Shown here piece by piece: positions 2,229 to 40,105 of a DNA stretch of 40,105 nt (its first letter is position 1; each line of letters opens with the position of its first letter). The stretch is from the NCBI GenBank assembly GCA_947425085.1, contig CANDYV010000004.1:1-40105 (forward strand), in the 5' to 3' direction. The translations under genes were made by a program, and so were the position numbers. Under the pieces are notes generated by a model. The model saw only the letters and a program-made list of their open reading frames with translations, had not been told where the DNA came from and ran no database searches. The stretch is from an uncultured Candidatus Saccharibacteria bacterium (GTDB taxonomy: Bacteria; Patescibacteriota; Saccharimonadia; Saccharimonadales; Saccharimonadaceae).

Positions 2229-3303
2229 CCCACTCCAAAATCGCCTTGAAAGTCTCCAGCAAGAACTCGATAACTCTTGGCACAGACTTAAGCTCGACGA
2301 AAAGCTCGCCGAGATCGAAAAACTCGAAGCCGAAGTTGCCGAGCCAGAAATTTGGCTAAGTCCCACTCATGCCCGCACTCAAAACGAAAAACTCGCCCGC
2401 TTGAGCGACGAAACGCAACCTTGGAAACTTCTCAAAGTTCAGCTGAGCGACTTGAATGAACTTATCTCCCTTGACGACCCCGACTTAAACTCAGAGCTCG
2501 AAGAACAACTCGAAGTCCTCGAAAACAACTTATCTGAACTCAAAAAACTTCTCCGCTTCACCGGAAAGTATGACCAAAACAACGCCATTCTCCGCATCAC
2601 TTCCGGCGTCGGCGGCACCGAAGCTATGGACTGGGCTAGCATGCTCGAACGTATGTATCTGCGCTGGGCCGAACGCAAAAACTTCAAAGTCACTTGTCTC
2701 GAACGCTCCGCCGGCGAAGAGGCCGGCATCAAAACCGCCGTCTATGAAATCTCTGGCGCCAATGCCTACGGACTTCTAAAAAGTGAACACGGTGTTCATC
2801 GCCTCGTCAGACTTTCGCCTTTCAATGCCGACAGCCTTCGACAGACTTCCTTTGCTCTCGTCGAAATCCTACCAATTATCGAAAATAACGATGAGCTAAA
2901 AATCGACGACAAAGACCTGCGAATCGACGTCTATCATTCCGGCGGACACGGCGGCCAAAGCGTCAACACAACCAACTCCGCCGTCCGCATTACCCATCTC
3001 CCGACCGGCACCGTCGTTGCCATCCAGAATGAACGTTCCCAACTCCAGAACAAAGAAAAGGCCATGGAGATTCTCCGCGGGAAACTCCTCCAAATGCAGC
3101 AAGAACAACACGCCGAAAGCATCGACAAGCTCCGTGCCGGCGAATCCGCTAAATGGGGTCAGCAAATTCGCAATTACGTCCTCCAACCCTACAAGCTCGT
3201 CAAAGACACTCGCACCAAACACGAGAACAAAGACCCCGACGCCGTACTTGACGGCAAATTCGATGACTTCATCGACGCTTACTTAGAGCAAGTTTCCGCC
3301 TAG
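2221..3303 (+). CDS. prfB: Peptide chain release factor 2
   Basis: GGQ motif in SGGHGGQSVNTTNSAVR and SPF tripeptide in RLSPFNADSLRQTSFA; continuous frame from ATG 2221. Confidence 0.93.
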   Translation: MPSPLQNRLESLQQELDNSWHRLKLDEKLAEIEKLEAEVAEPEIWLSPTHARTQNEKLARLSDETQPWKLLKVQLSDLNELISLDDPDLNSELEEQLEVLENNLSELKKLLRFTGKYDQNNAILRITSGVGGTEAMDWASMLERMYLRWAERKNFKVTCLERSAGEEAGIKTAVYEISGANAYGLLKSEHGVHRLVRLSPFNADSLRQTSFALVEILPIIENNDELKIDDKDLRIDVYHSGGHGGQSVNTTNSAVRITHLPTGTVVAIQNERSQLQNKEKAMEILRGKLLQMQQEQHAESIDKLRAGESAKWGQQIRNYVLQPYKLVKDTRTKHENKDPDAVLDGKFDDFIDAYLEQVSA

Positions 3304-3358
3304 AACTTATAAGCACAAACGTCTTGCCGCTCGATAATTCTTGTGGTATTATAATAGT

Positions 3359-4537
3359 ATGATCTTGCTCGACCGCGTAACGAAGACCTACCCAGGCGAC
3401 GAGGAACCGGCGCTCGATAATATTTCTCTCCACATCGAGCCGCATGAGTTCGTTTTTTTGGTCGGCAAATCCGGTGCTGGTAAATCTACTTTGATTAAAA
3501 TGATCACAAAGGAAGAGCAGCCCGACTCTGGCAAAATCGTCATCGGCGGCATCGACCTCGACTACGTTCGCCGTCGCCATATTCCGCACTATCGCCGTCG
3601 CCTCGGTGTTGTTTTTCAAGATTATAAACTGCTCCCGACTCGCACCGTTTTCGAGAACGTCGCTTTTGCCCTCGAAATTGCCGGCATGAGCAACCGCGAA
3701 ATCAACAAAACCGTCCCAAAAGTCCTCGATCTCGTCGGTCTCGAAAACAAAGCCAACAAATTCCCAACCACTCTCTCCGGTGGGGAACGTCAGCGCGTTA
3801 GTATTGCTCGCTCTGTTGCGCGCCAACCAAAAATCCTCATTGCCGACGAGCCGACCGGCAATCTCGACAAGCTCACTCGCCAAGAAATCATCGAGCTTCT
3901 TCAAAAAATCAACGATTTCGGCACAACCCTCCTCGTGACTACGCATGACGAGAATATCGTCAACGACCTCGGCAAGCGCGTCGTCACCTTAAAGGCTGGT
4001 CGCATTGTCGACGATCAAAAATACCACGGCGTTTATCGCCTCGATAGCGCGCCCGAACCAGAAGTCACTCCCGAGCCAGAGCAGCCGCTTATTATCAGCC
4101 AGCAGCCAATCATCCAGCGCGTCGCCTCGCTGAATAGCAAGCCAAACCGACCCAGAAACAACCAGCGCCTCACTTCCTCCTTACAATACACCATGAAAAT
4201 CGATCACAAAACTAATCAGCCCACTGTTGCATCTAGCTCCAAAACTTCTCCCAGACCCGTTAATAGCCCCGCTAAAGCTCAAAAGAACCAAAGCAAACCA
4301 GTTCCAACCCAGGTCAAACCCGAACCAGTCCCGCAAAAACCAGCCACCCCGCCCAAAAAATATGCCCGCGACTCCGCCAATCAATGGTATACCGCTAGCA
4401 AACCCCTCAAAGCTGCGCCAAAGCTCAGCAATCTCAGTCTCGGTCAAACCGTCAAGTTAAAACCCGCCCCCAGCATCAAACAAGCCGTCGCGAGCCGCAA
4501 GAACTTGCCCAAAAATAAACAAAAACGCGTAATCTAA
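3359..4537 (+). CDS. ftsE: Cell division ATP-binding protein FtsE with a long Pro/Lys-rich C-terminal extension
   Basis: Walker A GKSGAGKSTL, signature LSGGERQRVSIAR, Walker B ILIADEPTGNLD; followed by ftsX. Confidence 0.92.
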   Translation: MILLDRVTKTYPGDEEPALDNISLHIEPHEFVFLVGKSGAGKSTLIKMITKEEQPDSGKIVIGGIDLDYVRRRHIPHYRRRLGVVFQDYKLLPTRTVFENVAFALEIAGMSNREINKTVPKVLDLVGLENKANKFPTTLSGGERQRVSIARSVARQPKILIADEPTGNLDKLTRQEIIELLQKINDFGTTLLVTTHDENIVNDLGKRVVTLKAGRIVDDQKYHGVYRLDSAPEPEVTPEPEQPLIISQQPIIQRVASLNSKPNRPRNNQRLTSSLQYTMKIDHKTNQPTVASSSKTSPRPVNSPAKAQKNQSKPVPTQVKPEPVPQKPATPPKKYARDSANQWYTASKPLKAAPKLSNLSLGQTVKLKPAPSIKQAVASRKNLPKNKQKRVI

Positions 4538-9283: not shown

Positions 9284-9301
9284 CTTGCATCATTTTCACC
9301 T

Positions 9302-9499
9302 CTCCGCCCCAGCCGCCGCCCCGCCAAATAAGTTATTTCTGATAAGTTAAGTTGTTTCGAAAAACTCACCGAACAACTTGTTGGGAACTTATCATATTAA
9401 GTTAATACCGCGATATCTATTTATTGTAAAAAGGAATAAGTATGTGCTATATCGACGCATATATGTACCTATTTGGCGGTTGCGGAGGCTGGGGCGGAG
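9302..9499. repeat. Inverted-repeat-bounded element 3' of FISUMP gene 1 (copy 1)
   Basis: Left arm CTCCGCCCCAGCCGCCGCCCCGCCAAATA; right arm TATTTGGCGGTTGCGGAGGCTGGGGCGGAG. Core AAAAAGGAATAAGTATGTGCTATATCG is shared with the copy at ~37962-38136. Confidence 0.8.
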
Positions 9500-9521
9500 A
9501 ATAATTTGAATGGTCGTCTTC

Positions 9522-10994
9522 CTATCTAGCGACGCAACGGACAGAAGAGCCCAAGTTGCGCGACGTGGTAGCAGCCGCATCAATATTGGTACTATCGTGG
9601 AAATATAGCTCCGAACTAGCATTGGCATTTACGCCCGTAGACGACCAATATCGGCCATTATTCCCAGCATTCACAAAATAATTAGTTGTTTGGTTGACGT
9701 AACCACCTTTTACAAAATAATACGGTGATGAAACTAATTTTACTACACTAGTTCCAACATTAGCAGCCGTAATTAAGGATCGAAAGGCGCCCGAAGTTCC
9801 TCCGGTTGGCAAGGTCCACCCTTTCGGACAAATGGAGCTAGTGGCTTGACCGAAAGACACACTCCCGCCAGTCCCAGCCGCTGCTGCATTCCATTGATAA
9901 TGATTTCCTAATATATAATGTGCGTTCACATCCCCATTAGCCGAAGTCGGCGTGTTATACGACGTAAATTGGGCACTACAGTTAGCTGCGCTACTATTTC
10001 CAGCACTACAAGAACTCGTGGAAGTCGGATTTGTAATCCTATAGTTTCCTAAATTCCAAGAACGCTGACCAGCGCTATCAGCCAAAATAGTAGAGCTAGA
10101 CGCAGTTGTTGCGGTGCTATACTCCGGAACCCAATTCGCAGTAACATCAGAATCGCTCGGAGTCAAAGCAGTTGAGGTAGAAAGGTCAAGATCTAAGTTC
10201 TGCGTCATCCAGCACTTTCCATCTGCCAACTTGCCGACCCAATAATACTTTCCGTCACGCGTATCACGAAGTTGCGCCTGGTCGCCATCAGCAACCTGCG
10301 AACAAATTGAACTTGTCATACCTTGCATAGTCGTAGTAAAATCAGCAAGCGTCATCTGTCTCGGGCTACTAACGACCGACACTACCACCTTATTTTCATA
10401 GATATCGGCCGGCTTATCATTCCCAACATGCGCCGCAAAGCTTAAAGTATATACGTCGCCATCTGACTTAATGTTAGTAGACGCATTTTCATCAATAACG
10501 TCACCCAAGCTATTGATTGGTATAGCCTGAAAGGTAGTACCCGGAGTTAAACCTTTAGTGACATTATATCCCCAGGAGTTAAGTGGCATGTCATTATAAG
10601 CAACTGGCGCAGCAATCGAATTGATAGTGGCTCCCGAAGAACGACCCGTTAATGTCGACTTGTTACTCCCGAAGTAAATAGTATAACCTCCAGAGTTTTC
10701 AATACTGATATAAGCCTGGACATAATATTGAGCAAAAGCGCCGTTAGGCGATGCAGGCGTAAGCGACGTAGAACCGGTAGCCTTTGTAAAACCAATATCA
10801 ACAGACGACTTAATCTCGGCTTGTGCCATCGGCTCGCTTTCATTCTCCGCCTGAACATCTGTCTCCTCCCCTGAACCGTCTAGCGCATTAGCCCTGCTTC
10901 CTAATGGGGGATTAACTAGCAAGAATGCCAGTAGCAACAAACTTATGCAGGTCGCGCTCCCAACAATATTAACTTTTCTTTGACCTTTTAGCAT
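9522..10994 (-). CDS. Secreted FISUMP-domain surface protein 1
   Basis: Signal-like N-terminus (MLKGQRKVNIVGSATCISLLLLAFLLV) and FISUMP core RDTRDGKYYWVGKLADGKCWMTQNLDLDL. Start at ATG 10994 with RBS AAGGAGGG. Confidence 0.85.
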   Translation of the reverse strand: MLKGQRKVNIVGSATCISLLLLAFLLVNPPLGSRANALDGSGEETDVQAENESEPMAQAEIKSSVDIGFTKATGSTSLTPASPNGAFAQYYVQAYISIENSGGYTIYFGSNKSTLTGRSSGATINSIAAPVAYNDMPLNSWGYNVTKGLTPGTTFQAIPINSLGDVIDENASTNIKSDGDVYTLSFAAHVGNDKPADIYENKVVVSVVSSPRQMTLADFTTTMQGMTSSICSQVADGDQAQLRDTRDGKYYWVGKLADGKCWMTQNLDLDLSTSTALTPSDSDVTANWVPEYSTATTASSSTILADSAGQRSWNLGNYRITNPTSTSSCSAGNSSAANCSAQFTSYNTPTSANGDVNAHYILGNHYQWNAAAAGTGGSVSFGQATSSICPKGWTLPTGGTSGAFRSLITAANVGTSVVKLVSSPYYFVKGGYVNQTTNYFVNAGNNGRYWSSTGVNANASSELYFHDSTNIDAAATTSRNLGSSVRCVAR

Positions 10995-11217
10995 CACGGC
11001 CCTCCTTTTGATTGGTTTATGAACGCCCGAACGAAGCAGTCTAATATACAAAAAGACGCCGCAAGGGCGTTCAACAAACTAATCTGCAAGTATTAGAAAC
11101 AAACAGTAAGTCTGAACCTTACGGCGTCATTTCACTAGTTGTTTCTAATTTTTGCACTTGTCCCATAAAAAGACACTTGCAGTTTTGATAATTAATTTGT
11201 TGAACACTTTCATTATA
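10995..11217 (-). promoter_or_regulatory. Structured 5' leader and promoter of FISUMP gene 1
   Basis: Minus-strand TATAAT (11212-11217); leader shares conserved blocks and paired segments with the leader of FISUMP gene 2. Confidence 0.75.
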
Positions 11218-37961: not shown

Positions 37962-38136
37962 TCCGCCCCAGCCGCCGCCCCGCCAAATAAGTTCATAAAT
38001 CCGTTGGGTGGATTTATAAGTCCTTACGATATCGATTTTATTGTAAAAAAGGAATGAGTATGTGCTATATCGTTTCCTGCGTCATGATTCGCAGGCAGGT
38101 TGACTTATTTTGGCGGTTGCGGAGGCTGGAGCGGAG
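37962..38136. repeat. Inverted-repeat-bounded element 3' of FISUMP gene 2 (copy 2)
   Basis: TCCGCCCCAGCCGCCGCCCCGCCAAATAAG ... CTTATTTTGGCGGTTGCGGAGGCTGGAGCGGAG; core AAAAAAGGAATGAGTATGTGCTATATCG. Confidence 0.8.
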
Positions 38137-38242: not shown

Positions 38243-39733
38243 TTACCGGGCGATACAACGGACAGACATACCATAATTCCTAGCATATGTATCGCCTAAC
38301 GGAGTAATAGTGGATGCACCGTTAAACGTCAAGTAATACGCAGTCGTACTGCTCGAAGCTTTCGGAGTAGAAGACCAGTAATATCCTTGGTCGCCAGCAC
38401 GAGCAAATAGCCAGCTGTTATTAGGTTCGACTTTACCACCCCTCACAAAATAATACGGAGAACTAGTTAATACGGCGACATTAGCACCCACAGAACCAGA
38501 GTTTATAAGTCCCTGCAAGCTACCGATACTCGTATCATTCGCTGTTGGCAATCTCCACCCCTTCGGGCAGATTGAATCGCTCGCCTGTCCAGAATAAATC
38601 TCACCACCAGTTCCAGCCGTCGCCGCATTCCAGGAGTAATGATTGCCCAAAATATAATGCGCATTAATATCCGCATTAGCGCTAGTAGGCGTCAAATATG
38701 CAGTAAATTGACTGGTGCAATTCGCTGCGCTATTTTTAGGGTATCCACAATCATTCGCTGTCGTCGGATTAGTGATTCGATAATTTCCCAAGTTCCAAGA
38801 ACGCGCCTGCATCCGGTCGTTCGTGATCGTCGAGCTAGTCGCACTCGTTGCTGTTGTATACCCAGGTGTCCAATTCGCAGTAACGTCTGAATCGCTCGGC
38901 GTCAACGCCTTCGATGTCGACAAATCAAGGTCTAAGTTCTGCGTCATCCAACATTTACCATCCGTCAATTTACCAACCCAATAGTATTTTCCATCGCGCG
39001 CGTCTTTCAGCTGCGCCGTATCGCCGCTTTTCGACGCCGCACAAACCGCCGTTGTCATGTCTTGCATGTTTGCCAACGACGTGAGACCAACTATCTCCAA
39101 CGGCGAAGACACCACACTCATCGTCACCGAATTCCGATAAGTTCCGGCCGGTTTATCTGCACCGATATTCGCCGCAAAGCTCAAAGCATAAGTCGTCGTC
39201 TCACTCGGGATACTTGTCGAAGCATTCGTATAAAGCGTTTCGCCCCGTCCCGCCGTCGAAATCGCCTTATATTGCGCATCATCCGCCACGGTATCCGTAT
39301 TTCGCGCCCAAGCATAGCCCCAGGTATTCGTCGTCATCTCGCCGTACTTCTTCGTTCCAGAAATCGGCGCAATCGTCTCCGTCCCGCCAACTCGCGTCAA
39401 ATTCGCACTACTACTCCCAACATAAACACTATATCCTCCCGAATTCTCCACGCTCACCGTCGCTTTCACTAACAATTTCGCCGACGCACCGGCCGTTGCT
39501 GACGGCGCCATCGATGCCGAGCCCTCCGTCGGACTAAAAGCAATATTCACCGTCGAAATTGTCGTCGCTTGCGGAGAAACTAAATCATCATAATTTTCAC
39601 TATTCTCAATAACTTCTTCCAGCGCACTCGCCCTACCTCCAATAAGTGGATTGACTAATAGAAATGCTAGTAGCAATAAACTTATACAGCTCGCACTCCC
39701 GGCGACATTAACTTTTCTTTGACCTCTTCGCAT
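38243..39733 (-). CDS. Secreted FISUMP-domain surface protein 2
   Basis: Paralog of gene 1: RGQRKVNVAGSASCISLLLLAFLLVNP and KDARDGKYYWVGKLTDGKCWMTQNLDLDL. RBS AAGGAGGG; ATG at 39733. Confidence 0.85.
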   Translation of the reverse strand: MRRGQRKVNVAGSASCISLLLLAFLLVNPLIGGRASALEEVIENSENYDDLVSPQATTISTVNIAFSPTEGSASMAPSATAGASAKLLVKATVSVENSGGYSVYVGSSSANLTRVGGTETIAPISGTKKYGEMTTNTWGYAWARNTDTVADDAQYKAISTAGRGETLYTNASTSIPSETTTYALSFAANIGADKPAGTYRNSVTMSVVSSPLEIVGLTSLANMQDMTTAVCAASKSGDTAQLKDARDGKYYWVGKLTDGKCWMTQNLDLDLSTSKALTPSDSDVTANWTPGYTTATSATSSTITNDRMQARSWNLGNYRITNPTTANDCGYPKNSAANCTSQFTAYLTPTSANADINAHYILGNHYSWNAATAGTGGEIYSGQASDSICPKGWRLPTANDTSIGSLQGLINSGSVGANVAVLTSSPYYFVRGGKVEPNNSWLFARAGDQGYYWSSTPKASSSTTAYYLTFNGASTITPLGDTYARNYGMSVRCIAR

Positions 39734-39952
39734 CACGGCCCTCCTTAAATTGGTTTACGAACACCCGAACGCCGCCACTCCATATAAAAATGACACCGCA
39801 AGGGTGTTCGACAAACTAACCTGTAAGCGAAACGCAATTAACGGATAGCCTGAACCTTACGGTGCCATGTTTTTCGTCAATTACGAATCGCTACTGTATA
39901 TAAAAATATACGCTTACTTTAATGGTTTAATTTGTCGAACACTTTCATTATA
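39734..39952 (-). promoter_or_regulatory. Structured 5' leader and promoter of FISUMP gene 2
   Basis: Minus-strand TATAAT (39947-39952) followed by GAAAGTGTTCGACAAATTAA and blocks shared with leader 1. Confidence 0.75.
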
Positions 39953-40050: not shown

Positions 40051-40105
40051 TGGTGATTCCGGCGGGAGTCGAACCCGCGATTTTCTGGATGAGAACCAGA
40101 CGTCC
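40051..40105 (-). tRNA. tRNA-Glu (CTC), 5' part cut off by the window end
   Basis: Minus strand GGACGTCTGGTTCTCATCCAGAAAATCGCGGGTTCGACTCCCGCCGGAATCACCA. Confidence 0.85.

What the first reader, a model, noticed from the sequence alone, without database searches (positions are those of the whole stretch)
39734..39952. FISUMP leader 2: mutually exclusive pairings next to the RBS
Middle segment B (GTCGAACACCC) can pair with the 5' segment (GTGTTCGAC) or the 3' segment C (GGGTGTTCG) just before the AAGGAGG RBS. In leader 1 the same choice is kept by B GAACGCCC and C GGGCGTTC, an A-U to G-C compensation in the B/C helix. Competing helices near an RBS are typical of expression platforms.
Basis: partly seen in the sequence, partly recalled or inferred. 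Interest (0 to 1): 0.75.

Follow-up and report, generated by a model that had tools for sequence, protein, structure and literature searches.

The report
New folding RNA switch before surface-protein genes
The stretch of RNA just ahead of a surface-protein gene in a tiny gut Saccharibacterium belongs to a previously undescribed, strongly conserved folding RNA that sits in front of dozens of such genes per genome and looks built to switch them on or off, probably by deciding whether transcription stops early.

Summary
The leader (window 39952-39731, minus strand) is one of about 11 copies in this genome and of 134 non-redundant copies I collected from related Saccharibacteria. P1 and P3 vary freely in sequence but keep pairing; the pseudoknot covaries. 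A short terminator-like hairpin uses the P1 end and PK3, so it excludes the P1+pseudoknot fold. No Rfam family matches. Copies here precede FISUMP surface proteins (roughly 30 copies in one genome); diverged homologues occur in 32 of 151 sampled Saccharibacteria genera before other, mostly envelope, genes. Shine-Dalgarno sequestration is not supported; transcription attenuation fits better. Polarity and ligand are unknown. This is a new orphan riboswitch/attenuator candidate.

The parts
39947..39952 (-). -10 box TATAAT (extended, TGt-TATAAT); RNA start expected at about 39942-39940
   Evidence: Sequence. In most related leaders the -10 hexamer starts 10-12 nt before the first P1 nucleotide.
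39924..39942 (-).
   Evidence: Pairs with 39821-39804; fold; covariation.
39911..39917 (-). P1b 5' strand GTAAGCG (partner CGCTTAC 39829-39823)
   Evidence: Sequence; covariation of the P1b position, own 29.4 vs swapped 16.4 (a narrower test is weaker, 22.5 vs 14.6).
39893..39912 (-). P2, variable short hairpin with U-rich loop (approximate limits)
   Evidence: Fold; U-rich loop visible in alignments A1 and A3.
39875..39885 (-). P3 5' strand CGTAATTGACG (partner CGTTAATTGCG 39843-39833)
   Evidence: Fold; own 29.2 vs swapped 14.4 over 133 leaders.
39855..39866 (-). PK5: P3-loop strand GGCACCGTAAGG of the pseudoknot
   Evidence: Complementary to 39803-39792; pair table; covarying variants.
39804..39821 (-).
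39792..39803 (-). PK3: switching strand CCTTGCGGTGTC
   Evidence: Pairs with PK5, with the terminator 5' arm, or with C.
39786..39807 (-). Terminator-like hairpin ACACC-CTTGC-GGTGT-CA-TTTTT (39807-39793, U-tract 39790-39786)
   Evidence: Hairpin with at least CACC:GGTG in 129/133 leaders; textbook GACACC-UUGC-GGUGUC + U5 in distant homologues.
39758..39766 (-). C: GGGTGTTCG, re-pairs with B 39810-39802
   Evidence: Sequence; C helix present in 94/122 leaders.
39740..39746 (-). Shine-Dalgarno AAGGAGG; start codon ATG 39733-39731
   Evidence: Sequence.
38243..39733 (-). FISUMP-domain secreted surface protein, regulated gene (about 496 aa)
   Evidence: PF09603 1.2e-10, TIGR02145 2.6e-14.
10993..11217 (-). 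Leader 1, second copy in the window: -10 11217-11212, PK5 11128-11117, PK3 11066-11055, U5 11054-11050, C 11028-11021
   Evidence: covariance-model hit 9.4e-10.
9522..11051 (-). FISUMP-domain gene behind leader 1 (true start near 10995)
   Evidence: TIGR02145 9.8e-15.

Best explanation
This is a member of a new class of structured cis-regulatory leader RNA of Saccharibacteria. The transcript begins with the P1 5' strand. P1, P1b, P2 and P3 form an aptamer-like domain whose P3 loop reaches back to the strand following P1, making a pseudoknot. That fold uses both arms needed by a short GC-rich hairpin that is directly followed by five U's. I infer that it is a transcription attenuator: when the domain is folded (P1 + pseudoknot) the terminator hairpin cannot form and RNA polymerase reads into the surface-protein gene; when the domain is not stabilised, the terminator forms. 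After read-through, C captures the switching strand and leaves the ribosome site free. Shown by sequence and comparison: the fold, the pseudoknot, the mutual exclusion, the association with FISUMP genes. Inferred: that termination really occurs, the polarity, and that an unknown signal sets the choice.
For: Covariation of P1 (98.5% of cells paired over P1 and pseudoknot, 230 two-sided changes, 0/500 shuffles), P3 and P1b. Pseudoknot: paired in 133/134 leaders with compensations such as CATCGTGG:CCATGATG, CCTAGCGG:CGTTAGG, ACTCGTGG:CCATGAGA and a matched one-base insertion on both strands in L310. G-U outnumbers A-C (P1 179:26, P3 199:59), so the selected molecule is RNA of the coding strand. 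Hairpin + U-tract in 129/133 and in distant homologues at a median of -9.4 kcal/mol, where most start codons lie 14-70 nt after the model end. Extended -10 promoter abuts P1. Nine copies in the own genome were found by BLAST without asking for a U-tract; those read in full carry it. Shine-Dalgarno sequestration not seen.
Against: The hairpin in FISUMP leaders is only 4-5 bp (median -7.5 kcal/mol) with five U's, a weak terminator by E. coli standards. The 12-bp pseudoknot helix also abuts the U-tract and could itself promote termination, so polarity could be reversed. Leaders were collected mainly with a motif that contains the U-tract, so its conservation is partly imposed by the search. No transcript data.
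Confidence: 0.6

Rival explanations
1. Same switch, opposite polarity: the pseudoknot helix (with its upstream A-tract and the U-tract) is the terminating structure, and opening of P1/P3 or capture of PK3 by other strands relieves it.
For: PK5 is preceded by A's (A at 117/133, 113/133, 86/133 at the three places facing the U-tract) so PK5:PK3 looks like a bidirectional terminator stem; RNAalifold picks this helix in the distant homologues.
Against: About 50 nt and the P1 3' strand lie between the two strands; the simple hairpin is also conserved and needs no partner.
Confidence: 0.2
2. Translation-level control: B:C and its alternatives change access of the ribosome to the start site.
For: C lies just upstream of the Shine-Dalgarno and B:C covaries in leaders 1 and 2 and is common (94/122).
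Against: Modelled Shine-Dalgarno accessibility is not lower when PK3 is free (0.50 vs 0.45; shuffled strand 0.40).
Confidence: 0.08
3. The leader is mainly a source of a terminated small RNA (about 150 nt) that acts in trans on the many paralogous leaders, whose PK5, PK3 and C strands are interchangeable.
For: Partners from other leaders pair with PK3 and C almost as well as the own ones (29.6 vs 31.1; 31.3 vs 33.4).
Against: High cross-complementarity follows simply from the conserved sequence; cis pairing is intramolecular and should win; start codons follow closely.
Confidence: 0.06
4. A DNA-level element: repeats that promote recombination or integration of FISUMP cassettes.
For: Many copies, a second palindromic repeat at the 3' ends, tRNA genes just upstream of 12/130 leaders.
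Against: P1 and P3 keep pairing while their sequence drifts; G-U is preferred over A-C; promoter and start-codon spacing are fixed.
Confidence: 0.04

Closest known systems
Transcription-terminating riboswitches with a pseudoknot aptamer (fluoride/crcB, ZTP/pfl, preQ1); from general knowledge
   Same: Leader RNA; pseudoknot strand shared with or overlapping an intrinsic terminator; decision made during transcription.
   Different: No Rfam match to any of 4227 families; ligand unknown; controls surface proteins; tens of copies per genome; P1 pairs the very 5' end of the transcript.
T-box leader RNAs (RF00230)
   Same: PK5/C contain a stretch like the T-box core UGGNACCGCG (exact in L306), facing a U-tract terminator.
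   Different: No T-box hit even at E<=10; the motif varies in step with PK3 rather than keeping the tRNA-binding UGG (31 of 133 have C in place of U).
c-di-GMP riboswitches upstream of adhesin and pilin genes; from general knowledge
   Same: Structured leaders controlling surface or adhesion genes in multiple copies per genome.
   Different: No covariance-model similarity; different helix layout.

Membership tests
Riboswitch / attenuator (functional kind) | Conserved structured 5' leader with covarying helices | tested here: met
Riboswitch / attenuator (functional kind) | Two mutually exclusive folds, one containing a terminator or masking the RBS | tested here: met
   Terminator-like hairpin overlaps P1 and PK3; RBS masking not seen. 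Actual termination not testable here.
Riboswitch / attenuator (functional kind) | Specific ligand or trans-acting signal | not testable with these tools
   No ligand evidence.
Any Rfam 15 family | Covariance-model score above the gathering threshold | tested here: not met
   Only tRNAs found; nothing relevant at E<=10.
T-box (RF00230) | Stem I with specifier loop and T-box bulge UGGN pairing with tRNA NCCA | tested here: not met
   No hit at E<=10; the U of UGG is not conserved.
Intrinsic terminator | GC-rich hairpin followed by a U-tract | tested here: met
   129/133 with CACC:GGTG and U5; 6-bp stem in most distant homologues.
FISUMP (PF09603/TIGR02145), regulated genes | Profile match of the downstream protein | tested here: met
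   Both window genes over the TIGR02145 cut-off; 36/48 downstream proteins match PF09603.

The most novel reading that the evidence does not exclude
A new riboswitch or attenuator class, found across Saccharibacteria and amplified to about 30 or more copies per genome in one gut genus, that sets which surface proteins of an obligate epibiont are made, in response to a single signal tied to the host-attached or free state. The pseudoknot is kept imperfect so that later-transcribed strands can replace it.
Probability: 0.3. Interest if true: 0.88.

Novelty: new variant of a known kind. Interest (0 to 1): 0.72.

Why it matters
Almost nothing is known about how Patescibacteria regulate genes: a 2024 review mentions riboswitches only as a tool to be imported (PMC11665869). 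Here is a native, covariation-supported regulatory RNA that marks a surface-protein repertoire and occurs in genera across the class, so ligand and mechanism become directly testable, and it may offer an inducible control element for genetically tractable Saccharibacteria.

Tried and rejected
RBS sequestration by the switching strand: tested over 98 leaders, not supported. Known Rfam families and T-box: no match. Literature on Saccharibacteria or Patescibacteria riboswitches, on RNA motifs there, and on FISUMP: nothing on this RNA. A phage or plasmid origin: none in phage or plasmid records; one viral-labelled contig holds a copy very like a G022 leader with a secreted-protein ORF behind it. 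A diversity-generating retroelement link: an RT with an IGNLTSQ motif lies on contig C31 near a FISUMP gene, but no A-biased repeats were found in the sampled loci. FISUMP genes in genomes lacking the motif mostly have short ordinary leaders. Genome-wide FASTA was not available. The pattern counts count some opposite-strand matches (C or PK5 read backwards); the leader sets were therefore filtered by P1 score, and a few of the 134 (L111, L137, L143) still look spurious on inspection.

Full report
WHERE IT IS. The window is contig C4 of a 717-kb, 45-contig Saccharibacteria genome (named relatives are 'Candidatus Saccharibacteria' MAGs, largely from ruminant gut). Two genes on the minus strand, 39733-38243 and about 10995-9522, encode secreted proteins with the FISUMP domain (PF09603/TIGR02145). 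The finding concerns the leader of the first.

THE OBSERVATION. A (39942-39934), B (39812-39802) and C (39766-39758) are as described, and leader 1 keeps both pairings through the reported A-U to G-C exchange. Both leaders fold far better than shuffled sequence (z -6.2 and -5.9). The A:B pairing is the base of a larger domain: P1 is about 18 bp long and starts at the expected first transcribed nucleotides.

RELATED LEADERS. BLAST found nine matches in the own genome but only short ones in relatives. Reading them exposed a conserved 3' motif CCCTTGCGGTGCCATTTTT and a P3-loop motif GGCACCGTAAGG. A genus-wide pattern search found the 3' motif in 49 of 174 genomes with no matches to the reversed control pattern in the listed genomes, and one scan of named genomes gave further loci. 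Filtering by an independent criterion, the P1 score, left 134 non-redundant leaders, well separated from opposite-strand and chance matches. A handful of these still look spurious. A covariance model built from 50 of them (R1) finds the RNA in 71 of 174 genomes of the genus and both window leaders. One genome (G062) has about 33 distinct sites when the exact matches and the model hits are merged.

STRUCTURE. P1: own partners score 39.1, partners from other leaders 20.6; 15 of 17 pairs have two-sided changes. P3: 29.2 vs 14.4. P1b: 29.4 vs 16.4 in a wide test, weaker in a narrow one. Pseudoknot PK5:PK3: found in 133 of 134 leaders, with compensated variants in divergent genomes and a matched insertion in L310. 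All 133 pseudoknots contain at least one non-Watson-Crick pair, usually U-G at the eighth pair, although the perfect strand GGCACCGCAAGG is used by several C elements. I read this as a hint that the pseudoknot is meant to be replaceable, but where C covers the same 12 nt it scores better than PK5 in only 14 of 54 cases, so this remains a suggestion. G-U far exceeds A-C in the helices: the RNA of the coding strand is what selection sees.

TERMINATOR-LIKE HAIRPIN. The P1 3' end and PK3 can instead form CACC-loop-GGUG followed by a U-tract (129/133). In leaders 1 and 2 the two arms differ together (ACGCC/GGCGT and ACACC/GGTGT). Energies in the window leaders put P1 and the hairpin state within 0.4-2.4 kcal/mol of each other for the RNA ending at the U-tract, and P1+pseudoknot about 12-14 kcal/mol lower before any pseudoknot penalty. 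So the domain fold competes with, and on paper beats, the hairpin.

C ELEMENT. A strand complementary to B/PK3 lies further on, mostly 27-88 nt after the start of PK3, in 94 of 122 leaders. In the window genome it pairs mainly with the P1 end, in others with PK3 and the U-tract (about 20 bp in L040, by eye). Since it follows the U-tract it cannot prevent termination there; it can only act after read-through. Modelled Shine-Dalgarno accessibility does not fall when PK3 is free, so RBS masking is not supported.

GENES. Of 119 leaders with a scored downstream ORF, 104 have a strongly hydrophobic N-terminal stretch. 48 complete proteins share a FISUMP-like consensus and 36 of them match PF09603. 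FISUMP genes occur in 170 of 174 genomes of the genus, so the RNA marks a subset of a near-universal family; sampled FISUMP genes in genomes without the motif mostly have short leaders. L206 shows a natural deletion of the P1-P3 domain that keeps the -10 box, the 3' half of the hairpin, the U-tract and C.

WIDER CLASS. R1 also hit other genera. Those loci (L292-L299) show the same layout with a stronger terminator GACACC-UUGC-GGUGUC-GUUUUU. A model from them (R2) finds 61 of 392 class genomes in 32 of 151 genera and almost nothing elsewhere in the phylum: one weak hit, G779. There the start codon follows the model end by 14-70 nt in most cases and the genes are mixed: OmpA-domain proteins, DUF4352 proteins, small membrane proteins, an NHL-repeat protein, DNA methylases, a gene before an Hsp70. 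L323 is a link: an R2-type leader before a FISUMP gene. P1 (31.7 vs 20.3) and PK (25.8 vs 23.1; shuffled 15.0) are again supported. The C element is weak there (18.0 vs 14.8 shuffled). Homology of the two groups rests on R1 scores near 46-49 bits and the shared layout; I consider it likely, not proven.

INTERPRETATION. Shown by comparison: a real structured leader RNA with a pseudoknot and mutually exclusive pairings, associated with FISUMP genes. Inferred: transcription attenuation with an antiterminating domain (about 0.6 including the unknowns), polarity (roughly 3:1 in favour of folded = ON), and an unknown ligand. It is not in Rfam 15 and I found no paper on it in the held library, which lacks most subscription journals and preprints.

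Noticed in passing
window 37968-38132 (second copy about 9297-9510): A ~165-nt palindromic, strongly folding repeat (z -7.1) just behind the FISUMP stop codon, at roughly 15-17 loci in the genome, many at 3' ends of FISUMP genes. Could be a mobile element end, a terminator or a second RNA.
   Followed up: partly
window 40054-40105 and loci L010, L029, L040, L055, L081, L094, L095, L132, L151, L152, L173, L184: A tRNA gene on the same strand ends 64-166 nt upstream of 12 of 130 leaders, where I estimate about one by chance; the window leader also has a tRNA (cut by the window end) upstream. Suggests insertion of leader-gene cassettes next to tRNA genes; some cases are probably orthologous.
   Followed up: partly
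L287 (contig C31) about 2838-4515, minus strand: A reverse transcriptase with IGNLTSQ and YVDD motifs near a FISUMP gene; possibly a diversity-generating retroelement.
   Followed up: partly
L206 (G078), about 100 nt before the FISUMP start: Leader with the P1-P3 domain deleted but -10 box, terminator half, U-tract and C retained: a natural domain-less variant.
   Followed up: no
L101, L130, L142: True leaders with secreted-protein ORFs behind them on contigs labelled Clostridia/Oscillospiraceae (rabbit MAGs); probably mis-binned Saccharibacteria contigs.
   Followed up: no
L305, L308, L309: In other genera the RNA class precedes or neighbours N6/N4 DNA methylase-like genes (Pfam match tested for L305 and L308), i.e. 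likely restriction-modification loci.
   Followed up: partly
L312, L321, L322, L325, L329: A recurrent family of ~75-105-aa membrane proteins (KDRKTYKILT...INRxYxG, resembling TM2-domain proteins by eye; L312 and L325 gave no Pfam match, the others were not scanned) directly follows the RNA in several genera.
   Followed up: no
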